Shown piece by piece: positions 24,851 to 42,325 of a DNA stretch of 45,606 nt. The DNA comes from Rheinheimera sp. 1928-s (lineage in GTDB: Bacteria > Pseudomonadota > Gammaproteobacteria > Enterobacterales > Alteromonadaceae): the NCBI RefSeq assembly GCF_029269265.1, contig NZ_JARIXP010000002.1, positions 146,829 through 192,434 of the forward strand. Reading direction: 5' to 3'. The position numbers and the translations under genes were made by a program. Each line of letters opens with the position of its first letter. Position 1 is the first letter of the stretch. The notes below the pieces were generated by a model. That model ran no database searches, had not been told where the DNA came from, and saw only the letters and a program-made list of their open reading frames with translations.

Positions 24851-27472
24851 GTGTCGTGGTTTAAAAAACTAATCATTCTGATGATTGCAGGTGCTTTTTC
24901 CGTTGTAGCTCTGGTTGCGGCGAGTTACTGGTATGTCAAAGATGACCTGCCAAGTGTGGCCACATTAAAAGATGTGAAGCTGCAAACGCCAATGCGTGTC
25001 TTTAGTCAGGACGGCGAACTTATTTCACAGTTCGGTGAAAAACGTCGTATTCCATTAAAACTGGAAGAAATGCCTGATTTGCTGCTCAAAGCCGTGCTTG
25101 CTACAGAAGACAACCGCTTCTATGAACACCCTGGCATTGATGTGATTGGTATGTTCCGCGCCTTTACCGTCGTTGCTATGAGCGGTGAAGCCAGGCAAGG
25201 TGCCAGTACTATTACTCAGCAATTAGCTCGTGTATTTTTCCTGACTCGGGAGAAAAAGCTAATCCGTAAAATTAAAGAAATATTTTTAGCTTTACGTATC
25301 GAACAGGAACTCACCAAAGATGAAATTCTGGAGCTGTATTTAAACAAAATTGAATTAGGGCATCGCTCTTTTGGTGTGGGTGCTGCAGCGCAAGTGTACT
25401 TTGGCAAAAACATTCAGGATTTAACTTTATCTGAAATGGCTATTATTGCCGGTTTACCGCAAGGCCCTTCGGTATTAAACCCGGTGCGTTCGCCAAGCCG
25501 TGCCCGGGCTCGTCGCAATATTGTATTGGGGCGTATGCTGAATGAAGGCTACATCACTCAGGCTCAGTATGATGAAGCACTGCAGGAGCCTATTTTATCC
25601 AAACTGCACGGCGCGCAAATTACCGCTTCAGCTCCTTATATAGCTGAAATGGTGCGTCAGGAAGTGGTGGATAAATATGGCGAAGAAGAAGCCTATTCCA
25701 AAGGTTTTCAGGTGTTTACTACTGTAGATTCTAAATTACAGGGTAAAGCTGTAGCTGCTGTGCAAAAAAATGTCGTGGGCTATGATGAACGCCATGGCTA
25801 CCGTGGCCCTGTCGCCACTTTGTGGCAAGCCACAGCCCAACCTCAGGAAGATGGTTCAGTTAAATTTGCCGAAACAGACCGCATGACGGATGAAGCTATT
25901 CTGGCTTATCTGGATACACAAAATGGTCTGGAAGATTTAATTCCGGCCGTTATTACTGAAGTGTCAGGCCAGCAGGCAGAAGCCATTTTATCCGGTGGCC
26001 GTAAAATCACCTTGCCATGGCAGGGGTTAAACTGGGCCAGAGCTTTTATCAGTCATGACAGACAAAGCCATCCACCTAAAGCAGCGGCCGACGTGTTAGC
26101 ACCAGGTATGCATGTATTAGTGCGTCCCGATGCCGGCGAATGGCGTTTAGGCCAAATTCCAGGTGTCAGTGGCGCTATAGTGGCCATTAATCCGAAGGAT
26201 GGTGCTGTGCAGGCCTTAGTAGGCGGTTACAGTTTTGCCATGACACAGTTTAACCGCGCCACTCAGGCGAATCGCCAGGTGGGTTCTAACATCAAACCTT
26301 TTATTTATTCTGCTGCGCTGGAAGCTAATCTGACACTGGCAACCTTAATGAACGATGCACCTATTCACCAGTGGGATGAAGGTTCAAATCAGGCATGGCG
26401 ACCGAAAAACTCCCCTGAAGTGTATGACGGAGCTATCCGTATTCGTGAAGCTTTAGCCAAATCAAAAAACGTAGTCGCAGTGCGTTTATTACGTGCTGTA
26501 GGTATAGAAAACACCCGCCAGCATCTGACTAAATTTGGTTTCAGAGAAAAAGATCTGCCACACAGTGAAACCCTTGCCTTAGGTTCAGCTTCGTTAACTC
26601 CGCTTGAACTGGCCACAGGTTATGCGGTATTCGCCAACGGTGGATATTTAGTGAAGCCTTATGTCATTACCAAAATTCTGGATGATCAAAATAACCTGAT
26701 TTACGAGCATATTCCTGTGCCAGTCTGCGCTGAATGCGAACAACAAGACTTAGCAACCAAGGCCGCTGCCGAACAAGCAGCAAAGGAAGCTGCAGCTCTG
26801 GCAGAAACAGCAGATCCTGAAGCTCAGTTGGAAGCTACTTTTGCCGAACAAACAGCGACAACCGAACCAGCGACTACAACAGCTCCGGCTTATGCGCCAC
26901 GGGTGTTATCAGCACAAAATGCATTTTTAATTGCTGACGCACTGAAAAGTTCGATTTGGGGTGGCGGTGACTGGAAAGCCGGCACTGGCTGGCTGGGTAC
27001 AGCTCACAGGTTACGAGAGTTAAAACGCCAGGATTTAGCCGGCAAAACAGGTACCACCAATGATGTAAAAGACGCCTGGTTCTCTGGTTTTTCGCCAGAA
27101 CTTGTCGTCACTTCATGGGTAGGTTTTGATGATGCTGAAAGCCGCTTAGGTAAAACAGCCTGGAATAATAACTTAGGCAAAGATCAGATTGCTGGCGGTG
27201 AGTCCGGAGCTAGAACAGCTTTACCGGCCTGGCAGGAGTTTGTCGGTTTTGCGTTAAAAGATAAACCACAAGTCTATATGCAGCCTCCTGTAGGCATCAC
27301 CTCAGTACGGATTGATCTGAAAACGGGTTTATTAACTCAGGCTACAGATAACAGCAGTGGCTTCGAGTTTTTTATTCAGGGTACAGAACCCAAAACTTAT
27401 GTGAACTCATCAGTGCAACAATTACCAACACAAAATAATCAGCAACAGCAAGACGAAATAGAGTTGTTCTGA
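24851..27472 (+). CDS. mrcA: Penicillin-binding protein 1A
   Basis: Bifunctional peptidoglycan synthase (glycosyltransferase and transpeptidase), anchored in the inner membrane by a helix at about 7-29; 873 aa (E. coli PBP1A 850). The GT51 domain spans about 50-225 with catalytic Glu86 (ATEDNRFYEH) and ARQGASTITQQLARVF. The transpeptidase domain spans about 430-790 with SxxK Ser479-Lys482 (GSNIKPF), SKN 538-540 and KTG 732-734. An Ala/Glu/Thr-rich stretch (about 628-680) interrupts the transpeptidase half. The start is GTG with GAGG 7 nt upstream. It is divergent from pilM across about 150 bp, as in E. coli and Pseudomonas (also called ponA). Confidence 0.97.
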   Translation: MSWFKKLIILMIAGAFSVVALVAASYWYVKDDLPSVATLKDVKLQTPMRVFSQDGELISQFGEKRRIPLKLEEMPDLLLKAVLATEDNRFYEHPGIDVIGMFRAFTVVAMSGEARQGASTITQQLARVFFLTREKKLIRKIKEIFLALRIEQELTKDEILELYLNKIELGHRSFGVGAAAQVYFGKNIQDLTLSEMAIIAGLPQGPSVLNPVRSPSRARARRNIVLGRMLNEGYITQAQYDEALQEPILSKLHGAQITASAPYIAEMVRQEVVDKYGEEEAYSKGFQVFTTVDSKLQGKAVAAVQKNVVGYDERHGYRGPVATLWQATAQPQEDGSVKFAETDRMTDEAILAYLDTQNGLEDLIPAVITEVSGQQAEAILSGGRKITLPWQGLNWARAFISHDRQSHPPKAAADVLAPGMHVLVRPDAGEWRLGQIPGVSGAIVAINPKDGAVQALVGGYSFAMTQFNRATQANRQVGSNIKPFIYSAALEANLTLATLMNDAPIHQWDEGSNQAWRPKNSPEVYDGAIRIREALAKSKNVVAVRLLRAVGIENTRQHLTKFGFREKDLPHSETLALGSASLTPLELATGYAVFANGGYLVKPYVITKILDDQNNLIYEHIPVPVCAECEQQDLATKAAAEQAAKEAAALAETADPEAQLEATFAEQTATTEPATTTAPAYAPRVLSAQNAFLIADALKSSIWGGGDWKAGTGWLGTAHRLRELKRQDLAGKTGTTNDVKDAWFSGFSPELVVTSWVGFDDAESRLGKTAWNNNLGKDQIAGGESGARTALPAWQEFVGFALKDKPQVYMQPPVGITSVRIDLKTGLLTQATDNSSGFEFFIQGTEPKTYVNSSVQQLPTQNNQQQQDEIELF

Positions 27473-27494: not shown

Positions 27495-27517
27495 AGGCCG
27501 CTTTTGCGGCCTTTTTT
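27495..27517 (+). terminator. Terminator after mrcA/ponA
   Basis: A 7-bp GC stem, AGGCCGC with GCGGCCT and loop TTTT, is followed by a run of Ts. It starts 22 bp after the mrcA stop: a textbook intrinsic terminator. Confidence 0.9.
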
Positions 27518-27544: not shown

Positions 27545-27956
27545 TTAAGGTCTAGCGGCGATCACCTCGATTTCGACCAACATGCCATCCGCCACTAAAC
27601 CTGCAATTTGCAAAATCCATTTTTCCGCCCAAAGCTGGATCCCCAACCAGAAACACTGTCATTTTAATCACATCGCCCATACCCAGGCCTTTTTGCTTTA
27701 ATGAGCTTTCAATCTGGCTCAGCACGTTCAGGGTTTGCTCTTCGGTATTGCCCCAAAACTCCACTGAGCCTTTGGCCGCTTTTGGATCTTTAGGTGCTGG
27801 TACTTTGCCGCTTTCAAACACCAGTTTATTTACTTCCACTGCATTGGCGATAGGAAAAGTACTGTTGTCGGGCAAAGGATAGCGTTTTACTTCTGCCATC
27901 AGGCTGCTGCTTGCAACACAAAGTGATAACAGAGCTAATTTTGTCAGGCTTTTCAT
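27545..27956 (-). pseudogene. Exported RidA-family protein, broken by deletion and frameshift
   Basis: RidA (YjgF/YER057c) proteins hydrolyse reactive enamines and imines. This copy has a signal peptide (1 to about 21, ending SLMA), so it was periplasmic. Residues up to 116 (GDPALGGKMDFA) read as normal RidA; the frame then gives 18 unrelated residues and stops at 27552. In the next frame, from about 27611 down to a stop at 27545, the proper RidA end appears: QIAGLVADGMLVEIEVIAARP (given here in its two halves, QIAGLVADGM and LVEIEVIAARP). About 20-25 residues between the two parts are absent, including where family members carry the Arg (Arg105 in E. coli RidA) that binds the substrate. The junction lies at about 27609-27612. 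It follows the cytochrome gene by 14 bp. A sequencing or assembly error cannot explain a missing block easily but is not excluded. Confidence 0.82.
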
Positions 27957-27970
27957 TCGGTGGTTTCCTC

Positions 27971-28618
27971 TTATTTTTTAATGTCCGTTTGTTGAAGATT
28001 TGTCTTTTGAATATCCAAAGTAGTGATATAAGCCACAAGATCAGTCAGATCCTGATCCCGCTTAATTGAAAGTGCAATTTGTTTCATCAGCGCCCCGGCT
28101 GCATCTTTTTCAGCACTACCACGCTGTCCGCTACGATAAGCCTGTAATTGACGTAACAAATACCAGCTGTACTGGCCTGCCAGAGGGGGAGATCCCATTG
28201 TCTGATTACCTTCAGCGGCAGCACCATGACAAGCCGCGCAAGTCTGATACAAGGTTTTGCCTTGGCTCACATCTCCGGCAACCTTTTCAACCGTTTTGCT
28301 GACCTGAAAACCGCGGATAAAGCCAATGGCGCGTTTTATATCCTCCGGGCTCATACTTTGAGCCACCGCCATCATTTCCTTACTATAAGCGTCTGTGCTT
28401 TGATGACCACGCCAACCCGATTGAAACGCCTGTAGCTGAGAAGACAAATACCAGTCGGGTAAAATAGCCAGATTAGGCGCACTGATAGCCTCGTTGCCCT
28501 GTGCATTGCTGCCATGACAGACCAGACAATACTGGGCATCGGTATGAAAAGTTTCAGCCTGAACAGTAGCGCTGAATAAAACAGCGAACAAGGCACAATA
28601 TAAGATCCAGTCCTTCAT
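27971..28618 (-). CDS. Periplasmic diheme cytochrome c
   Basis: Exported 215-aa protein (signal peptide 1 to about 21, ending VQA) with two heme c sites, CLVCH (31-35) and CAACH (127-131). The two halves are an internal duplication: WYLSSQLQAFQSGWRG in the first matches WYLLRQLQAYRSGQRG in the second, the layout of cytochrome c4/c553-type electron carriers. The ATG overlaps the stop of the amine oxidase gene by 4 bp, so the two are translationally coupled. I infer that this is the electron acceptor of the flavoenzyme; cytochrome acceptors are known for the related nicotine oxidoreductase NicA2. The physiological partner downstream (oxidase) is unknown. Confidence 0.9.
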   Translation of the reverse strand: MKDWILYCALFAVLFSATVQAETFHTDAQYCLVCHGSNAQGNEAISAPNLAILPDWYLSSQLQAFQSGWRGHQSTDAYSKEMMAVAQSMSPEDIKRAIGFIRGFQVSKTVEKVAGDVSQGKTLYQTCAACHGAAAEGNQTMGSPPLAGQYSWYLLRQLQAYRSGQRGSAEKDAAGALMKQIALSIKRDQDLTDLVAYITTLDIQKTNLQQTDIKK

Positions 28619-30213
28619 ACCGCCACCTGCCGCTGCTTTTGGTGTTCCTGCTGCTGGATACTTTCCATCGCATACCAGGCCGAGCGCACAGCTCCTTCCT
28701 GCCAGCCAGGGTGATAACTAACCTGATCGCCTACCATATAATGAGCACCCACAGGTGCCTGTAAGGTCGCAAAACTACTCTTCAGCAAATCTTCCGACCA
28801 GACAGCGCCACAACCCAGCATATGATTCATACGTTGCCAGCACACACTGTTGCCCTGCTCTATGTATTTACCATAGTCCGGATGCAACTTTGCCCCCTGA
28901 GTGATAGCAGTGGCTATCCGCTGCTGATGGGTCATTGCAGAAATACGATCGGAGATGGCTGGGTCCCAGCTGTAAGCCCCCAGCAAAATGCCTTTGGCTT
29001 TAAATAGACCATGTGAAGGGTACCAAATTTGGGTGATATCCTGATTGGTCCAGCTGATGCCTGAATAAATCTGATCTTTCTCCCAAAAGCGTTCTTTCGC
29101 CTGCAAGGCTATTTTCGATAGTTTTCCACGCTGCAGCGCCTTCATCACAGCAACATAGTCAGCAGGGAAATTGTTTTCTATACCAGCCATCAACTGAGCA
29201 GGAATACAGTTCAGGCAATAGTCGGCCTGCTCTACCTGCAACTGACCATCCAGCCAGTAGCTGACTTCAACACCTTGTGGCAGCAGCTGTACTTTTTGTA
29301 CTTGTGCTTTTAACTGCACTTTGCCGGCTAAGCGACTCAGAAAAGCATCGACTATTTTGTCCATACCGCCAACAGGTGTTATCACTGCTGCCGCCTGATC
29401 AGCCAATTCGCCAAAATGCATGGCTCCAGCCCAGAAATTACTTTGCAGCAAATCAGCAAAGGCTCTCGGTTTTTTCAACACCCCTGGCGATAAAATGCCA
29501 CCTGACTGATAACCAGCTCTGTCACTGCCCTCATAAGTAAAATCACTGGATAAGTCACCATAAGAGCGGCAAAACTCCAGTAGCTTTTGTCGGTCTATAT
29601 CGTCAAAGGGAGCATCCAGTTTTGCCTGTGCCTGCACAGACTTTGCCATCAATTCACTGAAAAAACCCCGGGTATCCGCTTCGTATTCACGTATACGAAC
29701 AGGTTTTCCGGCAAAAGCATTGTCATCCTGGGTGTAGCAGTTTTTGTTGTAGTTACAAAACGTCTGCATCTCTACAGCAAATTCGCGGCAGTAGTGCAGA
29801 ATAGCGGTGTGATGGGCAGGAATACGGGCAGGACCTGCATTGAAATACAGGTCTGGGTCTTTATCAAAGTTACAAAATTGCGGGTTACCTAGCTCATCAA
29901 TAAAATCACCATGACGAATGGTAAGGTTTCTGCCGCCCGCTCTGTGGGAGGCTTCAAGGATCTTGCAGTGATAACCTGCTTTGCCAAGTTCGTAGGCAGC
30001 CACCAAACCACTGATGCCAGCTCCCAGTATTAATACAGTTTTAGGTCCCGAGGTTAAAGGCTTCAGCTTCACCAGTTCAGCCTGGGCCTGCACCGGAGTG
30101 GCGAATAAGCCAAATAAACCAGCTGCCTGTAACATAGCGGCTGAACCACCCACTTTACCTATCCACAACAAGGCTTCTCTTCGGCTGAGCTGTTTATTAT
30201 GTATCTCTGTCAT
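28615..30213 (-). CDS. Tat-exported flavin monoamine oxidase family protein
   Basis: FAD enzyme of the amine oxidase (MAO/polyamine oxidase/L-amino acid oxidase) superfamily, 532 aa. A twin-arginine signal (SRREALL, Arg11-Arg12, cleavage near AQA 45) implies export folded with its FAD. The dinucleotide site is VLILGAGISGLVAAYELG (64-69 GAGISG) with EASHRAGGR after it. The C-terminal FAD block includes GAHYMVGDQVSYHPGWQEGA. I place the start at ATG 30213, with GAGGG 10 nt upstream and the Tat motif near the N-terminus; an in-frame TTG at 30324 would add 37 residues ahead of the Tat signal. It oxidises an amine to an imine; the substrate is not predictable. It lies 111 bp after the receptor gene and overlaps the cytochrome gene. 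Confidence 0.88.
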   Translation of the reverse strand: MTEIHNKQLSRREALLWIGKVGGSAAMLQAAGLFGLFATPVQAQAELVKLKPLTSGPKTVLILGAGISGLVAAYELGKAGYHCKILEASHRAGGRNLTIRHGDFIDELGNPQFCNFDKDPDLYFNAGPARIPAHHTAILHYCREFAVEMQTFCNYNKNCYTQDDNAFAGKPVRIREYEADTRGFFSELMAKSVQAQAKLDAPFDDIDRQKLLEFCRSYGDLSSDFTYEGSDRAGYQSGGILSPGVLKKPRAFADLLQSNFWAGAMHFGELADQAAAVITPVGGMDKIVDAFLSRLAGKVQLKAQVQKVQLLPQGVEVSYWLDGQLQVEQADYCLNCIPAQLMAGIENNFPADYVAVMKALQRGKLSKIALQAKERFWEKDQIYSGISWTNQDITQIWYPSHGLFKAKGILLGAYSWDPAISDRISAMTHQQRIATAITQGAKLHPDYGKYIEQGNSVCWQRMNHMLGCGAVWSEDLLKSSFATLQAPVGAHYMVGDQVSYHPGWQEGAVRSAWYAMESIQQQEHQKQRQVAV

Positions 30214-30324
30214 CGGCACTATTCCCTCTACATCCTGCACAAAAGCAGACGGGTCACGATCAAAAGAACAAAACCCAGGCTGCGGTATCCCTAATGCAGC
30301 CTGAGTTCTGCCCTGACTGCTCAA

Positions 30325-32898
30325 TCAGAAGGTATAAACGCCTCTGAAGTAGTAATAGCCGCCGTTGAAGCCGTATGGCGAAGTCACAGGGTATTTAGCC
30401 CCAACAGAATCACCATAAGGGTTCAGACCCGGGTATTTATCAAAGGCGTTTTGTGCACCGACAATCAGTTCTATGTTATCGCTGAGCATGTAGCCCAATT
30501 CAAGATCGACCAGAAGTGCAGATCCTTCAGACATGCCCTGAGCAGCGTCGTAGGTATCGTCTACTTCCCAGAAAGAACCAAAGTAGTTCACTCTGGCCAG
30601 TGCACGCCAGTTATCCTCTGAGTGATTAAAGCTGATGCTGCCACGGGTTTTAGGTAAGTTCTCCTCCAATGTGCGGATTTTGACGTCATCTATATTGGTG
30701 GTCAGCGGATCAACAGTGACTTCGGTTTTGTTCCAGTTCATAACAAAACTTAATTTGGATGCACCAGATCCCAAATCCAGATCCTGACTGATGACTAAGT
30801 CTGCTCCCGTCGTTTTAGTGTCAAAGTCGTTGGTAAAAAACTTAATGCTGGTATAGCTGGTTGCGTCGTTAATCCCCATAGCCAGCAAAGCAGCAATATC
30901 AGTTTCGGACAGTTCAAGCGGAGAGGTTTGACTCAACCGATCTTCCACGTCAATTCTGTACATGTCTAAAGAAACGTGAGTGGAACCAAACTCGCCCACT
31001 AAACCAAAAGAAAGGTTTTCAGATTCCTCTGGCTTTAACGCTTTTCCGCCTTTTTGAATTGATATGGGGTTATCCGGCGGCAGTGTTGCTTCGTCTACCA
31101 AACCATTAGGGCCAAAAGCTGTACTGACGTTCACCACTTTGCTTTGGCCTATTGTAGGCGCACGGAAGCCTGTACCCGCTGCAGCGCGCAACGACAAGCT
31201 ATCGGTGATTTTAAACAAGCCGGAGACTTTCCAGTTGGTGGTATCACCAAAGTCGGAATAATCTTCATAACGAACAGCGCCATTGAGCATCAGGTTTTCT
31301 GTAACCCAACTGGATACATCGGTATAAAAAGATAAATTATGGCGACTGAATACCCCTGCAGATTCAGGTTTAAAACCGGGGAAACCATTGGAACCAATAC
31401 CAAAACCTTGATCCGCCAACACACCCACAGAGTAAGAGGGCACATCACCGGCTTTGACTTCAAAGGTGTCTTCACGCCATTCCATGCCACCTGCCAGCAC
31501 CACTGCATCATAGAAACCCACTTCAAATTCGCGGAACAAATCCATATTTAATCCGAGCTCACTTTGCACATAAGTGCCAGGACTAAAACTGGTCGGTGAA
31601 TTGGCGCCTAAGGACGCGTTCACTGTATTGTTTATTTTAAACTCGGCCTGGTTGCGGCCGTAGGATGCACTTAAGTCGAAAAATATGTCATTAACCAGTT
31701 CGCCTTTGACACCACCAGCAATGGCGCTGTCGGTCACTGTGCCACCAAATTTTGGTGTAAAACCGCCCGGGAACATTTCAACAAAAGACCAGCAATTTGG
31801 ATCTGCAGTGATAGCAGCCAGGTCAGATGCAATAGGAATACCATTGGCATCCAGTCGTAATGGACCACAACTGTTACCATCATCCGGAGTCATGTCGCCA
31901 ACCAACACCGAATCGTATTCGACATCATCTACTGTTACTTTAGGACCTGCATAAACACCGCCGCGGTTAGTGGGGTTACGATAATAAAAACCGCCCTCAA
32001 CTTCACGCTGGGCATGGTTACCAAAGGCATAGGCCTCTTTGCCATTTTTCAAATCAAGTTCCAGATTGGCGAAGAGTTTAAAGTCATCTTTGATTTCCGG
32101 TGAACCCCAAACCTGAGCTGGATTCAACACTGCTGTATTGCCAGCTTCAATCAAAGCTGCAGCGTCAGAGCGCTGCACACTGCGATCGGTCGGGTCCGCA
32201 TTTTTGTATTCAAAACTGAAGTTGGCAGAACCGGAATCGGTTAGAGGTAAACCTATATTACCGGCCAATGTTTCACTGGTGCCGTCCCCTTCATAATGCT
32301 GGCCCCATTTGGCTTCCAGCACACCACCTTCGCTATCATTTTTTAGCTGGAAGTTCAGCACACCAGCTATAGCATCAGAACCATACTGAGCCGCAGCACC
32401 ATCGCGTAATACTTCGACTTGTCTTATAGCAACCGCAGGGATCACCGAAATATCAGGGCCCTGAGCACCATCTGAAATACCACCACCAGCAAAGGCAATG
32501 ACTGAGGCGCGGTGACGTCTTTTACCATTCACTAACACTAGCGTTTGATCCGGACCAAGACCACGCAAATTGGCAGGACGAATTAAAGTAGCGGCATCGC
32601 TGATAGACTGAGCATTGATGTTAAAACTGGGCACCAGAGTACTCAGCATATTAAGCATATCCGGGTTACCCTGATTGGCGAACTCTTCAGCACCTATAAT
32701 ATCGATAGGCACGGGAGACTCACCGACAGAACGTGGTGCGGCGCGGGAGCCTACCACTGCAATTTTCTCTACATTTTCTTTCTCTTTGGCTGCATCATCC
32801 TCTTCGGCCGCTAAAGCAACACCACTATAGCCCAGTAAAACAGCACCTTGTAATGCGGCACCTATCTGCAGACATAACGCACTTTTTTTTATTTTCAT
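30325..32898 (-). CDS. TonB-dependent outer membrane receptor
   Basis: Outer membrane active transporter, 857 aa. A long signal peptide (1 to about 31, ending GVALA) is followed by an acidic spacer and a likely TonB box around EKIAVVGSRA. The plug domain (about 60-180) includes ANLRGLGPDQTLVLVNGKRR, then VEVLRDGAAAQYGSDAIAGV. The 22-strand barrel ends in Phe (YYFRGVYTF). This plug type is common in Alteromonadales receptors whose substrates are largely unknown. ATG 32898 starts a proper signal peptide; the open frame extends 27 codons upstream without a signal-like sequence. It is first in the receptor-amine oxidase-cytochrome-RidA series, so I infer uptake of the amine substrate. No Fur-type box is evident upstream. 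Confidence 0.92.
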   Translation of the reverse strand: MKIKKSALCLQIGAALQGAVLLGYSGVALAAEEDDAAKEKENVEKIAVVGSRAAPRSVGESPVPIDIIGAEEFANQGNPDMLNMLSTLVPSFNINAQSISDAATLIRPANLRGLGPDQTLVLVNGKRRHRASVIAFAGGGISDGAQGPDISVIPAVAIRQVEVLRDGAAAQYGSDAIAGVLNFQLKNDSEGGVLEAKWGQHYEGDGTSETLAGNIGLPLTDSGSANFSFEYKNADPTDRSVQRSDAAALIEAGNTAVLNPAQVWGSPEIKDDFKLFANLELDLKNGKEAYAFGNHAQREVEGGFYYRNPTNRGGVYAGPKVTVDDVEYDSVLVGDMTPDDGNSCGPLRLDANGIPIASDLAAITADPNCWSFVEMFPGGFTPKFGGTVTDSAIAGGVKGELVNDIFFDLSASYGRNQAEFKINNTVNASLGANSPTSFSPGTYVQSELGLNMDLFREFEVGFYDAVVLAGGMEWREDTFEVKAGDVPSYSVGVLADQGFGIGSNGFPGFKPESAGVFSRHNLSFYTDVSSWVTENLMLNGAVRYEDYSDFGDTTNWKVSGLFKITDSLSLRAAAGTGFRAPTIGQSKVVNVSTAFGPNGLVDEATLPPDNPISIQKGGKALKPEESENLSFGLVGEFGSTHVSLDMYRIDVEDRLSQTSPLELSETDIAALLAMGINDATSYTSIKFFTNDFDTKTTGADLVISQDLDLGSGASKLSFVMNWNKTEVTVDPLTTNIDDVKIRTLEENLPKTRGSISFNHSEDNWRALARVNYFGSFWEVDDTYDAAQGMSEGSALLVDLELGYMLSDNIELIVGAQNAFDKYPGLNPYGDSVGAKYPVTSPYGFNGGYYYFRGVYTF

Positions 32899-33394
32899 AG
32901 TTTTTATCCAGGGTGAGAGGTAAACTGATGTTCCTGCATTACGCGACAAAAACTGCGACGCCGCCTGCTGATTTTCCATTCATATAATCAACATATAAAT
33001 ACAGTCCTACTTAGTTCAACTCACGTCAATTGAATAAAAATTAACCATCAGATGAAAATTAGTATTTTATATAACAGCATGTTTTAATTTGTTTTTATTC
33101 AGAAAACATCAAATACAACTACTGCACCACAATAAAACAGCCAGATAATCACCCAACCACTAAAGTGAATATAAATGCACCAATGCGGTTCACTAGTTTG
33201 TCTTTTCATCTTAAGTAGTGCAGCCGGTTCACTCAATTTAGTGCATTTTCTTTCAGCAAAAGAATCCGCCAGAGAAGGTCAGGCTTTTGACCACCAGCAA
33301 GTGCAACCAGATACATTCACTTACACAACCCAATGAATTTTTTAAGGAAACAGCGGTCTGAAATTTATAATTCAATTCAGGAAGAGAAAAAGTG
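32899..33394. promoter_or_regulatory. AT-rich intergenic region between the receptor gene and the DUF533 gene
   Basis: About 500 bp with no convincing gene; it must hold the divergent promoters of the receptor and DUF533 genes. Noted elements: TGAATAAAAATTAA (33031-33044), matching 13 of 14 ArgR-box positions and forming a 10-bp inverted repeat with TTTTTATTCA (33092-33101); and two direct copies of CGGTTCACT (33186-33194 and 33225-33233). None can be tied to a regulator from sequence alone, and AT-rich matches arise easily by chance. Confidence 0.35.
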
Positions 33395-34090
33395 ATGAAT
33401 ACAAAAGCTTTGTTAGAACAACTGTTAAAAGCTGGCTCTGATGTAATGCAGCAAAAAACCTCAGGCACTATGGGCTCTAAAACAGCTGATTTATCTTCTG
33501 TCAGCAAACTCATGTCAGGTTTTGGCGGTGGCGCTTTATCAGGTGGTGCTTTGGCTTTGCTGCTTGGTTCAAAACAAGGCCGCAGTCTGGGTGGGAAAGT
33601 CATTACTTATGGCGGTTTGGCTGCCTTGGGTGTACTTGCCTATAAAGCCTATGGTAACTGGCAACAACAAAATAAAGGGACAGTGGATCAACATGAACCA
33701 CAAACTGTAGACCGCTTGCCTGCAGCAGAGGCTGAGCAGCACAGTAACGCTATTTTAAAAGCGCTGATCGGTGCAGCCAAAGCTGATGGTCATATAGATC
33801 AACAGGAACGCGAATTGATTGACAGCGAAATAGCCAAACTGACTTCAGATCTTAGCCTGCAGCGCTGGTTTGACCAGGAAATGGCAAAGCCGCTGGATCC
33901 GGCTGACATTGCTTTGGCGGCTACGACAGAAGAAATGGCAGCGGAGATGTATCTGGCTAGTTTACTGGTGATCAATGAGCAAAATTATATGGAAGGCGCT
34001 TATTTACAGGAGCTGGCACGACAGCTCAAACTGCCGGTTGAACTCAAAGCTGAACTGGATTTTCAGGCCAAGCAGGCCCTTTCTCAATAA
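33395..34090 (+). CDS. yebE: YebE-like DUF533/TerB-fold membrane protein
   Basis: Inner-membrane-associated protein, 231 aa. The N-terminus contains a Gly-rich hydrophobic region (about 44-90: GGGALSGGALALLLGSKQGR, then GGLAALGVLAYKAYGNW). The C-terminal half (about 115-230) is a helical TerB-like domain: ALIGAAKADGHIDQQERELI, then EMAAEMYLASLLVINEQNYMEG, both given in part. It matches the E. coli YebE/DUF533 family, whose function is unknown, though yebE is an envelope-stress (Cpx) gene in E. coli. ATG 33395 follows AGGAAGAG; the GTG immediately before it is in frame but closer to the RBS. It stands alone on the plus strand. Confidence 0.87.
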   Translation: MNTKALLEQLLKAGSDVMQQKTSGTMGSKTADLSSVSKLMSGFGGGALSGGALALLLGSKQGRSLGGKVITYGGLAALGVLAYKAYGNWQQQNKGTVDQHEPQTVDRLPAAEAEQHSNAILKALIGAAKADGHIDQQERELIDSEIAKLTSDLSLQRWFDQEMAKPLDPADIALAATTEEMAAEMYLASLLVINEQNYMEGAYLQELARQLKLPVELKAELDFQAKQALSQ

Positions 34091-34100
34091 CATCTGACCG

Positions 34101-34171
34101 TTAATCAGGCTATTCATTCGGCAACGCTGGCTTTGGAATTTGTTGCTGACAAGCCAGAATAGCCTGATTAA
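34101..34171. repeat. 15-bp perfect inverted repeat around the 3' end of the binding-protein gene
   Basis: TTAATCAGGCTATTC (34101-34115) is the reverse complement of 34157-34171, separated by 41 bp. The left arm contains the stop codon of the minus-strand binding-protein gene, and the right arm lies inside its coding sequence (reading INQAIL). Both arms are flanked by CATTCG. The loop is too long for a standard terminator. Confidence 0.6.
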
Positions 34172-34787
34172 TCGAATGAATATGCCGTTTACCAAAAGCC
34201 TTGCTCAGATAAAAACCACCTGATGTGGTATTAAACACCTGCTGGTGGTAAAGCGGACTTTGCTCAGACAGCAATGCGTTTAATGACAAATCCGGCAGCA
34301 AGGCAGCATCCACCCTTCTGGCGTCCAGAGTCAGTAATTGTTTATCAAATTCTTCAACATAAACAACATTCAAATACCCAGCTTTTTCCAAATAACTGGC
34401 TTGTAGCGAACCACGTTTTACGGAGACGGAGATAGCCTTGTTTGTCAGGTCAACTTTTGAGTCTGGCAAGGTTAACCATATATTATTCACTGTGACAAAC
34501 TCGATAGACCGCACAGAGCTTTTATCACGCTCAGCATCAAACAAAGCCGGGTAGACTAAATCAAGCTCTCCTGTTGCGACATGATGAAATAAGCGGATGT
34601 TAGGGTAACTTTTCCAGTCAAACTGCAACTGACTTTGTTGCTCTATGCAGCGCAGCAATGAAGCATCATAACCTCTTGGCTCTGCTGCTCCAGGTAAAGA
34701 CAGGCTGAAATTCGTTGGATGGCCAGCTTTGACCACTGGAGTGGCTTGCACTGATGCCACAAAACATAAAAAAAGCCACTTTTTCAT
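34110..34787 (-). CDS. Periplasmic solute-binding protein, family 3-like
   Basis: Exported protein of 225 aa with signal peptide 1 to about 15 (MKKWLFLCFVASVQA). The fold appears to be a small type II periplasmic binding protein (SBP_bac_3 style): GYDASLLRCIEQQ (lobe 1), LDLVYPALFDAERDKSS, SVKRGSLQASYLEKAG (hinge) and RVDAALLPDLSLNALL. No ABC permease or ATPase is nearby and no sensor domain is fused, so it may be an orphan binding protein; such proteins are frequent in Alteromonadales. ATG 34787 has GGTGGA about 9 nt upstream; a GTG at 34802 is also open. Moderately sure of the family, not of the ligand. Confidence 0.72.
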   Translation of the reverse strand: MKKWLFLCFVASVQATPVVKAGHPTNFSLSLPGAAEPRGYDASLLRCIEQQSQLQFDWKSYPNIRLFHHVATGELDLVYPALFDAERDKSSVRSIEFVTVNNIWLTLPDSKVDLTNKAISVSVKRGSLQASYLEKAGYLNVVYVEEFDKQLLTLDARRVDAALLPDLSLNALLSEQSPLYHQQVFNTTSGGFYLSKAFGKRHIHSINQAILACQQQIPKPALPNE

Positions 34788-34829
34788 CAGTGTCTGATCC
34801 ACCCAGTTTTTTTAAAGTATAGCCAAACA

Positions 34830-39314: not shown

Positions 39315-40351
39315 TCTGCGGCTCCAGCAAATAAACCTGCGGTTTCGGGAGCACCAAATTTGATATTGGCCGCCTGCATAGCTTGTGCAGCAGCACCTTT
39401 GAGTAAGTTATCAATAGCGGACACAATCACCAGTTGCTCACCATCCTGTTGCCAGTGGATATCACAAAATGGTGTGCCCGCCACATCAGCCACATTCGGT
39501 GAGTGTTTGACTAAACGTACTAATGGCTTAGCTGCATAAGCCTGCTGGAAAGCGGCTGCCACTTGCTCTGCAGTAACGCCTGACTTTAAAGTCACCACGC
39601 TGGTGGCCAGAATGCCACGTTTAAAGTTGCCTAAATGTGGCGTAAACACCACTTTGCGGCCTAAATTCTGTTCGATTTCAGGTCTGTGTCTGTGTTTAAA
39701 GAAGCCATAGGCATTCAGGCCCACTTCGCAAAATGACGTACTTAATGCCGCTTTACGACCCGCACCAGACACACCGCTGGTGGCGTTAATCACAGGAATA
39801 CAACCATCGGCCACTAAACCTGCTTTTAATAAAGGCAACAAGGCCAACGAACAAGCTGTTGGGTAACAACCCGGCACAGACACCAACTGAGGCAATGGCT
39901 TATCCAGCCACTCCATCAGTGAATACACAGCTTGATCCAAGAGTTCAGGATGCTGATGCTCATAGCCATAATACTTAGGATACAAAGCCGGATCTTTTAA
40001 ACGGAAAGCACCGGATAAATCAAACACGGCTATGCCTTTGGCCAATAACAAAGGCGTGACAGCTTCACTGACTTCATGCGGTAAAGCTAAAAAAGCCACA
40101 TCCAGTTTGCCAGCTAAGTCTTCGACTAAATCGTCCGTCCACGGCTGTACCTGGATATCTACAACGCCCTGATAACGTGGATATAAATTAGAAAAAGGCT
40201 CAGCAGCGCGGCCAGCGGAAGCAAAAGCGTAACTCAACTCAAAATACGGATTCCGTGCCAACATAACGGCCAATTCGGCGCCGCTATAGCCGGCAGCACC
40301 TAATACAGCGCTGCGCAGTGTGGTGGTAGGGGAAGTGGATTGAGTGGACAT
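39311..40351 (-). CDS. argC: N-acetyl-gamma-glutamyl-phosphate reductase
   Basis: NADPH-dependent reduction of N-acetylglutamyl phosphate to the semialdehyde. 346 aa. The dinucleotide site is GAAGYSGAE (18-26), and catalytic Cys162 sits in VPGCYPTA; FTPHLGNFKRGI is a substrate-side motif. ATG 40351 is chosen because the family length is about 335-345 aa; the open frame continues 30 codons to a TTG with no family similarity. GGAG is about 12 nt upstream, somewhat far. First gene of argCBFGH, with candidate ArgR boxes about 90-125 bp upstream. Confidence 0.95.
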   Translation of the reverse strand: MSTQSTSPTTTLRSAVLGAAGYSGAELAVMLARNPYFELSYAFASAGRAAEPFSNLYPRYQGVVDIQVQPWTDDLVEDLAGKLDVAFLALPHEVSEAVTPLLLAKGIAVFDLSGAFRLKDPALYPKYYGYEHQHPELLDQAVYSLMEWLDKPLPQLVSVPGCYPTACSLALLPLLKAGLVADGCIPVINATSGVSGAGRKAALSTSFCEVGLNAYGFFKHRHRPEIEQNLGRKVVFTPHLGNFKRGILATSVVTLKSGVTAEQVAAAFQQAYAAKPLVRLVKHSPNVADVAGTPFCDIHWQQDGEQLVIVSAIDNLLKGAAAQAMQAANIKFGAPETAGLFAGAAE

Positions 40352-40441
40352 AGGTCGCTGAGTCTCCGAAAACAAAAATAATAAATTAAGGCCACGCCAA
40401 AAAAGTGTGGCCAGTGTAGTGGCTTCGCCATGCAGTTTCAA

Positions 40442-40494
40442 GAATTATTATGCTGAATTAGTGAATTTTTATTTTATTTAATTCATAAATTCAA
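40442..40494 (-). promoter_or_regulatory. Candidate tandem ArgR operator upstream of argC
   Basis: Two sites resemble the ArgR box TGAATWWWWATTCA: AGAATTATTATGCT (40442-40455, 11 of 14) and TGAATTTTTATTTT (40463-40476, 12 of 14). Their starts are exactly 21 bp apart, the spacing of paired 18-bp ARG boxes with a 3-bp gap in E. coli. The wider region also forms an inverted repeat, TGAATTAGTGAATT (40455-40468) against AATTCATAAATTCA (40481-40494). Repression of argCBFGH by ArgR with arginine is inferred. Confidence 0.55.
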
Positions 40495-40570
40495 ACAAGC
40501 ACAAGATCCACTGCAGAAAGACCACAGCTTAGACCAAAATGGCCCAAGGCAGAAGTCGAACTGACTTAAA

Positions 40571-42325
40571 TCAAAGACCCATAGCTTCGCCCTGAGGATC
40601 GATATTCTGACCCGACAGGCTATTCAGCGCATCAGCTAAGGTTGAATAAAAACTCAAAATACCAGGCAAAGGTTGCACCTTAGCTTTCGCCAGAGTTTTC
40701 AGCGGTTGAAAGGTTAAATCTGTCACCAATAAATGAGTGCCTTGCTTTTCAGCCAGACTCACCAGCTTAGTAAAAGCTGAGAGTCCACCCGCATCCATCA
40801 GCGTCACTGCATCCATCACTAAAATAGCGCCTTGCTGCTGCTTGAGTTTGACCGATAGCTCACCAAAAACCCGGTCTGCTGCGGCAAAAAATAAAGGGCC
40901 GCTGATGCGAAATGCTTTCCAGCCTTCAGGTAAAGGCTCAAGCAGGTATTTTCTGTTATGACTGATATCCGCGACACGGGTCATATCCGCCACTTGTTTA
41001 ACAAAGAAAAAAGCGGCGATGACCATGCCACAGCTGATGGCAATAACCATATCAAACAGCACTGTACAGCCAAAACAAATCAGGAAAATAATAATGTCGT
41101 TACGCGGAGCGGTTTTTAGCAGATGCACAGCTTTAGGCGCTTCACTCATATTCCAGGCGACAACTAACAGCAAAGCGGCCATAGCTGCCATAGGTAAATA
41201 GGCCAATACAGGCGCCAGCACCAGCAAAGCCAATAACACCACCAGCGCATGGATCATGCCAGCTATGGGCGACTGAGCACCAGCCCGCACATTGGCAGCG
41301 GAGCGGGCTAAAGCAGCTGTTGAAGTGAATCCACCCAAAAATGGCGCCACTATATTGCCAATGCCCTGGCCTAATAATTCGCTATTAGCACTGTGCCTGC
41401 GCCCTGTCATACCGTCCAAAACTACGGCGCACAGTAAGGATTCAATAGCGCCTAACATCGCCATTGCAAAAGCTGCTGCCAGTAAGTCTTTCACCATTTG
41501 AGTACTGAACTCTAAAGCTTGCCCATCAGGGCCTGCCTGTAACCAGGGCCAGGTGAATTCGGGTAATACAGCTGGGATGCCCTGCCCTTGCGAGCCATCA
41601 GGTAACAGATAGCTAAATCGACTACCTATGGTGTCCAGCTCCAGCCCAAAGTGAGCCAGCGCTAAGGCCAAGGCTGTCGCTATCACTATGGCAGGTAAAT
41701 GCGGTGGTAAAGGCAGTTTGAGTTTTGGCCAGAGCCACATCACAGCTAAAGTCACAGCAGCCACCAGCAAGGATGGCCAATGCAGATCGGGTAAGGCAAA
41801 AGACAGTTGCTGTAATTTCTCTAAATAATGCTCAGACAGCTTCTCTATCGGCAAACCAAAGACGTCTTTAATTTGCAAAGTGGCGATCACCACAGCAATA
41901 CCGCTGGTAAAACCTAAAGTAACTGCTTCGGGAATATATTCAATAAAACGACCAAAACGCATAGCGGCCATGATGATCAACATCACACCAGACAAAATAG
42001 TGGCCAGCAGCAAGCCCGCCAGACCATAACTTTGCGCAACAGGGTATAAAATAACCACAAAAGCTGCGGTAGGCCCACTAATGCTGTAACGGGAACCGCC
42101 GGTCAGGGCTATCAGAAAACCTGCGATCACTGCTGTATACAAACCGTATTGAGGCGGTACACCGCTGGCTATCGCCAACGCCATCGCCAGTGGAATGGCG
42201 ATAATACCGACAGTGATACCGGCCAACAGATCCAGCTTAAAAGCGCCAAAGCTATAGCCTTCAGCCAGACATTCCCGCAGCGCATGGCCAATACGCAAAG
42301 AAAACAAATAAGAGCGGTGCGACAT
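40571..42325 (-). CDS. dauA: SulP-family C4-dicarboxylate/anion transporter DauA
   Basis: Inner membrane SLC26/SulP transporter, 584 aa. The N-terminal ~430 residues form many hydrophobic helices with the SulP signature around IPLAMALAIASGVPPQYGLY (20 residues shown) and GGSRYSISGPTAAFVVILYP. A cytoplasmic STAS domain covers about 440-565 (FFAAADRVFGEL, then LVMDAVTLMDAGG). It is collinear with E. coli DauA (YchM), which carries succinate and other C4-dicarboxylates at acid pH; other anions are possible. ATG 42325 (MSHRSYLFSL) is preferred over a TTG nine codons upstream. It lies upstream of argC on the same strand, with 219 bp between that hold the arg promoter. Confidence 0.88.
   Translation of the reverse strand: MSHRSYLFSLRIGHALRECLAEGYSFGAFKLDLLAGITVGIIAIPLAMALAIASGVPPQYGLYTAVIAGFLIALTGGSRYSISGPTAAFVVILYPVAQSYGLAGLLLATILSGVMLIIMAAMRFGRFIEYIPEAVTLGFTSGIAVVIATLQIKDVFGLPIEKLSEHYLEKLQQLSFALPDLHWPSLLVAAVTLAVMWLWPKLKLPLPPHLPAIVIATALALALAHFGLELDTIGSRFSYLLPDGSQGQGIPAVLPEFTWPWLQAGPDGQALEFSTQMVKDLLAAAFAMAMLGAIESLLCAVVLDGMTGRRHSANSELLGQGIGNIVAPFLGGFTSTAALARSAANVRAGAQSPIAGMIHALVVLLALLVLAPVLAYLPMAAMAALLLVVAWNMSEAPKAVHLLKTAPRNDIIIFLICFGCTVLFDMVIAISCGMVIAAFFFVKQVADMTRVADISHNRKYLLEPLPEGWKAFRISGPLFFAAADRVFGELSVKLKQQQGAILVMDAVTLMDAGGLSAFTKLVSLAEKQGTHLLVTDLTFQPLKTLAKAKVQPLPGILSFYSTLADALNSLSGQNIDPQGEAMGL

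What the first reader, a model, noticed from the sequence alone, without database searches (positions are those of the whole stretch)
27545..32898. Four-gene exported amine-oxidation cluster: receptor, Tat flavoenzyme, diheme cytochrome, RidA
Seen: four consecutive minus-strand genes encode a TonB-dependent receptor, an amine oxidase-family flavoprotein with a clear Tat signal, a diheme cytochrome c overlapping it by 4 bp, and a RidA homologue with a signal peptide 14 bp further. Every product carries an export signal. Known: flavin amine oxidases make imines; the relative NicA2 passes electrons to a c-type cytochrome instead of oxygen; RidA proteins hydrolyse imines and enamines. Inference: the receptor imports an amine, the flavoenzyme oxidises it in the periplasm with the cytochrome as acceptor, and RidA releases ammonia and the carbonyl product. 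I do not know a described system with this full set.
Basis: partly seen in the sequence, partly recalled or inferred. Interest (0 to 1): 0.75.

Follow-up and report, generated by a model that had tools for sequence, protein, structure and literature searches.

The report
Exported amino-acid dehydrogenase cluster, RidA broken
These four neighbouring genes look like a version of a known bacterial cluster that strips nitrogen from amino acids outside the inner membrane and passes the electrons to a cytochrome, but in this genome the helper gene RidA has lost a piece and is probably dead.

Summary
The four genes and their order are real, but two points of the finding fail. The RidA gene is broken: against four congeners it has a 74-bp deletion that shifts the frame and removes the conserved Pro-Ala-Arg stretch. 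The finding's end, 27545, is the stop of a frame this gene no longer reaches. And the flavoenzyme is not NicA2-like: its best solved match is Rhodococcus opacus L-amino acid oxidase (E 4e-78), and the GPxRIP Arg is invariant in 36 of 36 aligned sequences. A homologous LAAO, cytochrome c, RidA cluster was published in 2016 for Gluconacetobacter diazotrophicus (PMC5053998; located here). The cytochrome-acceptor idea is in print for other members of the superfamily (PMC12224317). The co-occurrence claim holds: in 35 loci, RidA in 26, a c-type cytochrome in 23, a TonB receptor in 17 (about 3 to 5 expected), though outside the genus the neighbouring receptor is mostly another subfamily. The window lies in a clade with a two-heme cytochrome. 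Six congeners lack the block at the same site. The receptor is followed by a conserved terminator-like hairpin and may be a separate transcript. Verdict: variant of a known system.

The parts
30325..32898 (-). TonB-dependent receptor (open frame from 32979; start ATG with signal-like MKIKKSALCLQIGAALQGAVLLGYSGVALAA at 32898)
   Evidence: PF07715 and PF00593; orthologue of 90-96% identity beside the flavoenzyme in 5 of 5 congeners that have the enzyme; dN/dS about 0.04
30261..30319 (-). Terminator-like hairpin, T-rich on its 3' side, between receptor and flavoenzyme
   Evidence: MFE -33.4 kcal/mol, z -5.96; hairpins also in G004, G021, G002, G007; alignment. Not listed by the simple scan, which allows loops of 3-8 only
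28615..30213 (-). Tat-exported L-amino-acid-oxidase-family flavoenzyme (532 aa from ATG)
   Evidence: PF01593 E 1.2e-35; PDB 2jae L-amino acid oxidase E 4.4e-78; Tat motif LSRREALLWIG; invariant Arg130 (GPARIP) and Lys367
27971..28618 (-). Diheme c4-like cytochrome c with Sec-type signal (by eye), overlapping the flavoenzyme gene by 4 bp
   Evidence: PF00034, two stretches; best PDB match cytochrome c4 1etp E 5.8e-17; dN/dS about 0.1
27552..27956 (-). Broken RidA (Rid3-like, exported form): 74-bp internal deletion with frameshift; conserved Pro-Ala-Arg stretch lost
   Evidence: an intact congener copy matches PFL1385 9bkc E 2.1e-36
27545..27551 (-). Former end of the RidA frame (stop used by intact relatives), out of frame here
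27495..27512 (.). Terminator-like hairpin between RidA and the convergent PBP1A-like gene, matched on both strands
   Evidence: 5 terminator-like sites found in the region against 6.0 in shuffles, so weak by itself
24851..27472 (+). Left boundary: penicillin-binding protein 1A-like gene (name recalled, no family search); not part of the system
   Evidence: Flanks the block in G004, G021, G016, G002; next to DUF533 in six congeners without the block
33392..34090 (+). Right boundary: DUF533 protein; not part of the system
   Evidence: PF04391

Best explanation
This is a block, present in some congeners and absent in others, that encodes a periplasmic L-amino-acid dehydrogenase system. The Tat-exported flavoenzyme oxidises an L-amino acid to its 2-imino acid. 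Its flavin passes electrons to the adjacent diheme c4-like cytochrome and so to the respiratory chain. The exported Rid3-type RidA normally speeds hydrolysis of the imine to 2-keto acid and ammonia. The TonB receptor, probably a separate transcription unit, brings a substrate across the outer membrane, most likely an amino-acid-containing compound or peptide. In this particular genome RidA has been lost by a recent deletion, so the imine must hydrolyse on its own or by another protein. Shown by sequence: gene families, homology to the published lao-cccA-ridA cluster, co-inheritance, the RidA deletion (in one assembly), presence or absence of the block at one site. Inferred: dehydrogenase rather than oxidase chemistry, L-amino acid as substrate, the receptor's role and cargo.
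For: Flavoenzyme nearest to R. opacus LAAO. The GPxRIP Arg is invariant in 36 of 36 aligned sequences, window included (36 of the 40 then in hand), and aligns with Arg at chain position 83 of 2jae; its role as carboxylate anchor (Arg84) is recalled. The published G. diazotrophicus cluster was located and five of six printed primers match it: LAAO 37% identical over 526 aa, RidA 44% identical to an intact congener copy. RidA subtype in 32 of 36 genomes with the enzyme and 0 of 16 congeners without. Of 35 loci: cytochrome-type CxxCH frame within 900 bp downstream in 23, TonB receptor within 5 kb in 17 against 2.9, 4.3 or 5.5 expected. Diheme (10) and monoheme (27) enzymes are each one side of a supported branch. 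PMC12224317 (abstract, passages, sections 14 and 18): an adjacent CytC gene is the stronger predictor of dehydrogenase function; its clade 1 pairs with about 20-kDa diheme c4 cytochromes. PMC5619798 (passages): Rid3 proteins hydrolyse imines that snake-venom LAAO makes from several amino acids. Flavoenzyme, receptor and cytochrome under purifying selection, window dN/dS 0.03-0.12.
Against: No kinetic data for this clade were found. The clade-1 diheme pairs in PMC12224317 reacted only modestly with their cytochromes in solution. 11 of 48 family rows have no cytochrome-type frame close downstream, so the flavoenzyme can do without one. The receptor link is loose: outside the genus, 13 of 30 enzyme-bearing genomes have a match to the window receptor at E up to 1e-60, and the best match lies beside the enzyme in only 3 of those 13 (G049, G443, G746). 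The G. diazotrophicus stretch shows no receptor by my profile. The hairpin argues against one transcript. The RidA deletion rests on one assembly.
Confidence: 0.62

Rival explanations
1. The enzyme is a periplasmic LAAO that uses O2 and makes hydrogen peroxide (nutrient scavenging or antagonism); the cytochrome is a neighbour or only a peroxide or electron sink.
For: The best solved relatives are named oxidases. A clade of 10 relatives plus one long-branch row has no cytochrome-type frame close downstream; nine of the 35 loci have RidA but no such frame (one of them, in G560, has one upstream). PMC5053998 describes LAAO as H2O2-forming.
Against: The cytochrome gene overlaps the flavoenzyme by 4 bp, and diheme and monoheme partners each map to one enzyme branch. 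PMC12224317: most tested FAOs with an adjacent CytC behaved as dehydrogenases. PMC5053998 recounts ccm mutants with 5% of wild-type IAA (original not read).
Confidence: 0.2
2. One reading: an amine (polyamine, aromatic amine) is the substrate of a NicA2-like enzyme.
For: Same superfamily, PF01593; Tat plus cytochrome layout as in NicA2 and Pnao (PMC12224317).
Against: LAAO is by far the best sequence match in the PDB; putrescine oxidase and MAO rows lie at about 1e-11 to 1e-7. The GPxRIP Arg is invariant.
Confidence: 0.08
3. The 74-bp RidA deletion is an assembly error and the system is complete in this strain.
For: The remaining RidA part is still under strong constraint (window dN/dS 0.02-0.05); single assembly; no reads.
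Against: The site lies inside a 647,724-bp contig, far from its ends, with no ambiguous bases in the stretch read; the same 74-bp gap against each of four relatives.
Confidence: 0.2
4. The receptor is an unrelated TonB gene that travels with the block but does not serve the enzyme.
For: Terminator-like hairpin; 58 TonB barrel matches in this genome; outside the genus the best match to the window receptor is beside the enzyme in only 3 of 13 genomes.
Against: 17 of 35 loci (13 of 25 genera) have a receptor within 5 kb; P by genus 3e-5 with doubled densities, 1e-3 with tripled.
Confidence: 0.3

Closest known systems
lao-cccA-ridA cluster GDI2456-2454 of Gluconacetobacter diazotrophicus PAL5 (PMC5053998)
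   Same: Homologous Tat-type LAAO (37% over 526 aa), homologous RidA (44% to an intact congener copy), c-type cytochrome between them in the same order; the same roles proposed in the paper's discussion
   Different: Monoheme cytochrome with no BLAST match to the diheme one; no TonB receptor by my profile in the 20-kb stretch; RidA full-length there, broken in the window; tied to IAA formation from tryptophan, not shown here
Tat-exported, cytochrome-c-using dehydrogenases of the flavoprotein amine oxidoreductase superfamily (NicA2, Pnao, clades 1-3 of PMC12224317)
   Same: Tat signal plus adjacent exported cytochrome; clade 1 pairs with diheme c4 cytochromes of about 20 kDa, as here
   Different: Only superfamily kinship seen; LAAO-type enzyme with GPxRIP Arg; the word Rid does not occur in that paper's main text
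Rhodococcus opacus L-amino acid oxidase (PDB 2jae; organism recalled)
   Same: Best solved match over 467 residues, E 4.4e-78
   Different: No cytochrome or RidA partner known to me (recalled)
Rid3 proteins PFL_1385 and PSPTO_3006 (PMC5619798; PDB 9bkc, 9bka)
   Same: An intact congener RidA matches both, E 2.1e-36 and 4.5e-33
   Different: The window copy lacks the C-terminal part
Chlamydomonas LAO1-LAO2/RidA periplasmic deamination (PMC10805672, passages read)
   Same: Extracytoplasmic LAAO clustered with a putative RidA
   Different: Alga; no cytochrome partner of LAO1 in the passages read

Membership tests
lao-cccA-ridA cluster | LAAO homologous to GDI2456 | tested here: met
   36.9% identity over 526 aa, E 5e-103
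lao-cccA-ridA cluster | c-type cytochrome gene directly downstream | tested here: met
   Overlap of 4 bp; but diheme, not monoheme
lao-cccA-ridA cluster | intact exported RidA next | tested here: not met
   74-bp frameshifting deletion in the window; met in four congeners
lao-cccA-ridA cluster | keto acid / IAA formation dependent on the cluster | not testable with these tools
   Needs a mutant
Cytochrome-c-using FAO dehydrogenase | Tat signal on the flavoenzyme | tested here: met
   LSRREALLWIG by eye; an [ST]RR motif found by one regular expression in 35 of 40 rows; two of the five misses (L054, L049) show RR by eye
Cytochrome-c-using FAO dehydrogenase | adjacent cytochrome c with Sec signal | tested here: met
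   signal by eye
Cytochrome-c-using FAO dehydrogenase | poor O2 reactivity, fast cytochrome reduction | not testable with these tools
   Stopped-flow needed
L-amino acid oxidase family | sequence kinship to LAAOs above other amine oxidases | tested here: met
   The 15 best PDB rows are L-amino acid or L-glutamate oxidases or reconstructed LAAO ancestors, except one labelled only 'Amine oxidase' (5ts5, by recall a snake LAAO); putrescine oxidase follows at 3.8e-11
L-amino acid oxidase family | carboxylate-binding Arg | tested here: met
   R130 invariant, aligned to R at 2jae chain position 83; role recalled
RidA imine deaminase | conserved Pro-Ala-Arg stretch near the C terminus | tested here: not met
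   Deleted in the window; PARS/PART present in congeners and in 9bkc/9bka; catalytic role of the Arg recalled
NicA2-like amine enzyme | nearest kin among NicA2 or Pnao | tested here: not met
   No entry so named among the best 60 PDB matches shown of 99; the remaining 39 were not seen

The most novel reading that the evidence does not exclude
A receptor-to-respiration module: an outer-membrane TonB receptor feeds amino acids or peptide products to a periplasmic LAAO-family enzyme that has become a dehydrogenase, wired to a dedicated diheme c4 cytochrome, with an exported Rid3 protein as its own imine hydrolase. The cell would gain electrons and ammonia without importing the amino acid across the inner membrane. 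The diheme, monoheme and cytochrome-free clades would be separate acceptor choices of one LAAO family. The window genome would be a natural experiment in which RidA has just been lost.
Probability: 0.33. Interest if true: 0.5.

Novelty: new variant of a known kind. Interest (0 to 1): 0.34.

Why it matters
If true, it extends the 2025 finding that many 'amine oxidases' are really cytochrome-linked dehydrogenases to the L-amino acid oxidase family, where the kind of cytochrome partner splits along the tree and so can be tested pair by pair. It gives an exported Rid3-type protein a concrete partner: in the 52 genomes searched it was found only with this enzyme. And it corrects the finding: in this genome the RidA step is missing.

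Tried and rejected
Rejected: close NicA2 kinship. A second copy of this RidA subtype elsewhere in the genome: only one match at E up to 1e-15. A different signal-bearing Rid-family protein exists at G000:C22 (L112:7459-8031), but by eye it has no PAR stretch, so it is a weak substitute. RidA as a long-decaying pseudogene: its remaining part still shows low dN/dS, so the loss is recent, or an assembly error. An insertion-element origin of the block was not tested.

Led nowhere: a genome-contig scan with a 36-sequence alignment (no stretch conserved enough); structure prediction (switched off). The genus was not identified, so I give no name. Of nine loci from the DNA pattern, five hold the enzyme and four do not. 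The iron-response paper PMC9368920 and the secretome paper PMC12502724 gave one passage each, of no help.

Weak points of my counts. The TonB expectation used first-look candidate numbers, which undercount (38 against 58 by Pfam in G000); one search repeats it with factors 1.53, 2 and 3 (P by genus 2e-6, 3e-5, 1e-3). The 35 loci leave out five congeners; with them the counts are RidA 30, cytochrome 28, receptor 22 of 40. The profiles were built from the same loci. The cytochrome count is a CxxCH frame within 900 bp downstream on the same strand; of these, five monoheme frames (L057, L054, L065, L067, L056) were checked in Pfam, besides the window's own. The monoheme label went to every row not in the other two lists; one L062 enzyme so labelled has its cytochrome-like frame upstream and counts as a miss. 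In one search the G004 cytochrome rows used a wrong frame and were dropped; two were redone. On this check I added the 3-of-13 receptor result and therefore moved the receptor rival from 0.25 to 0.30 and the novel case from 0.35 to 0.33.
Full report
Observation. The window holds four minus-strand genes in the order given: TonB receptor, flavoenzyme, diheme cytochrome, RidA. Overlap and gap are as stated (4 bp, 14 bp). The RidA frame, however, is 134 aa and ends at 27552; only profile positions 13-75 of 121 of PF01042 match. Four congeners carry a 161-residue protein (frames of 168 codons) with LPARS and ending in EIEVIA(A/V)RP. Pairwise DNA alignment gives the same 74-bp gap in the window at 27611-27613 against each of the four. 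Against G004, G021 and G016 there is no other gap inside the gene; against G002 there are three small ones in its last 20 bases, where that alignment is poor. The deletion removes the conserved PAR stretch, present also in PDB entries 9bkc and 9bka, and shifts the frame. The finding's end, 27545, is the old stop codon.

What the flavoenzyme is. Pfam gives PF01593. No NCBIfam model reaches its cut-off. In the PDB the best match is 2jae, L-amino acid oxidase (R. opacus, recalled), E 4.4e-78; the next rows are reconstructed and other L-amino acid oxidases, then L-glutamate oxidase; putrescine oxidase follows at 3.8e-11 and MAO B at 1.6e-8. In 36 aligned family members, window included, R130 (GPARIP or GPWRIP) and K367 are invariant; they align with Arg and Lys of 2jae. 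That this Arg binds the substrate carboxylate is recalled, not from a call.

Distribution. With the window's own genome counted, homologues were found at E up to 1e-30 in 6 of 369 genomes of the class sample and 27 of 398 of the phylum sample, and at E up to 1e-20 in 8 of 60 relatives, among them 5 of 21 congeners. I fetched 38 stretches and scanned them, with the window, using profiles built from the window set. Leaving out the five congeners, 35 loci remain: RidA within 3 kb in 26, CxxCH frame close downstream in 23, TonB receptor within 5 kb in 17; all three in 8, the window's among them. Expected receptors: 2.9 by first-look counts, 4.3 after scaling to the Pfam count in G000, 5.5 at double and 7.7 at triple density. 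Independent check by whole-genome search at E up to 1e-15: this RidA subtype in 32 of 36 flavoenzyme genomes and 0 of 16 congeners without the enzyme. The four misses are G486, G720, G544 and G298.

Three clades. In a maximum-likelihood tree of 48 rows (the 40 loci and 8 from Gluconacetobacter and Nguyenibacter genomes) the monoheme group (27) and the diheme group (10, with the window) are each one side of a supported branch; the 11 rows without a close downstream cytochrome are a supported group of 10 plus one long-branch row. The enzyme's lineage and the cytochrome type therefore go together.

Published cluster. PMC5053998 (abstract, passages and the first of two parts of the discussion read) describes lao-cccA-ridA in G. 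diazotrophicus, where Tn5 insertions in lao abolished IAA and also lowered cccA and ridA transcripts, and proposes that cytochrome and RidA assist the LAAO. I found the locus by a pattern from a printed primer; five of six printed primers match my stretch L103 exactly. Its LAAO is 37% identical to the window's, its RidA 44% to a congener copy; its cytochrome is monoheme and shows no BLAST match to the window's. PMC12224317 (abstract, passages, sections 14 and 18 read) shows that many Tat-exported members with an adjacent cytochrome are dehydrogenases, and that one clade pairs with diheme c4 cytochromes, with only modest rates in solution. The window's cytochrome is c4-like (best PDB match 1etp). 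PMC5619798 (passages read) shows imine deaminase activity of Rid3 proteins with LAAO products. Full-text searches for a TonB-dependent receptor with L-amino acid oxidase and RidA, and for flavin monoamine oxidase with RidA and cytochrome c, gave no paper; a third gave one irrelevant paper (listing, and one passage). Those searches cover open-licence PMC papers only.

Receptor. The window receptor has an orthologue of 90-96% identity beside the flavoenzyme in all 5 congeners that carry it, and a paralogue of 53-59% in the own genome and all 21 congeners, with or without the enzyme. In this genome the paralogue (G000:C5) lies divergent to a dipeptidyl peptidase IV gene, a hint of peptide cargo and no more. 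Outside the genus the link is looser: of 30 enzyme-bearing genomes 13 match the window receptor at E up to 1e-60, and the best match is beside the enzyme in 3 (G049, G443, G746; 41-47% identity) and elsewhere in 10. So a receptor is often there, but mostly of another subfamily. Between receptor and flavoenzyme a hairpin with T-rich 3' side folds at -33.4 kcal/mol (z -5.96), and four congeners fold similarly with changed sequence (z -2.1 to -3.8). The fifth, G016, was aligned only in part. The simple terminator scan did not list it.

Presence and absence. In G004, G021, G016 and G002 the block lies between the PBP1A-like gene and DUF533 as in the window; in G007 only the DUF533 side is on the contig. 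In G001, G010, G015, G012, G008 and G014 the two flanking genes are neighbours without it, G012 with another small gene between them. In the other ten congeners without the enzyme the PBP1A-like gene is next to argH and DUF533 is not found there. G001, whose PBP1A-like protein is 99% identical to the window's, lacks the block. Gain and loss cannot be told apart from this.

Mechanism. Best reading: L-amino acid to imino acid at the flavin, electrons to the diheme cytochrome, imine hydrolysis by RidA where intact, receptor for substrate entry. The first two steps are inferred from kinship and from kinetics of other clades; the RidA step is inferred from Rid3 biochemistry and is missing in this genome; the receptor's role and cargo are unknown. 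Selection on the window's other genes remains strong (dN/dS 0.03-0.12), so the rest of the system is not visibly decaying.

Verdict. A real, conserved cluster of a known kind, in a diheme variant with a frequent TonB neighbour; not an undescribed system; RidA broken here.

Noticed in passing
L119:4262-4624 (G012): At the site where the window has the block, G012 carries a different single small gene (120 aa) between the PBP1A-like gene and DUF533, so the site takes up different inserts; by recall it looks like a DUF1428 protein.
   Followed up: partly
L111:6644-11741 (G000:C5): A receptor 55% identical to the window's, with a counterpart in all 21 congeners, lies divergent to a dipeptidyl peptidase IV gene in this genome.
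   Followed up: partly
L112:7459-8031 (G000:C22): A second Rid-family protein with a signal-like start, of another subtype, which by eye lacks the PAR stretch.
   Followed up: partly
L061, L066, L068, L069, L072, L074, L075, L076, L078, L079: A clade of flavoenzyme relatives without a cytochrome-type frame close downstream; RidA within 3 kb in eight of the ten: candidates for true oxidases.
   Followed up: partly
L066, L069, L070 (G659): Three paralogous flavoenzyme loci in one genome with different neighbours.
   Followed up: no
window 40001-42000: AT skew of 0.19, about twice the next highest 2-kb step of the window.
   Followed up: no
window 34110-34802: A small solute-binding-like protein (PF00497 below cut-off) beside the block; present next to DUF533 in G001, G010 and G012, which lack the block, so not part of it.
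   Followed up: partly
plasmids collection: Flavoenzyme homologues below 60% identity on 37 plasmid records, in Mesorhizobium, Ketogulonicigenium, Deinococcus and others; neighbours not examined.
   Followed up: no
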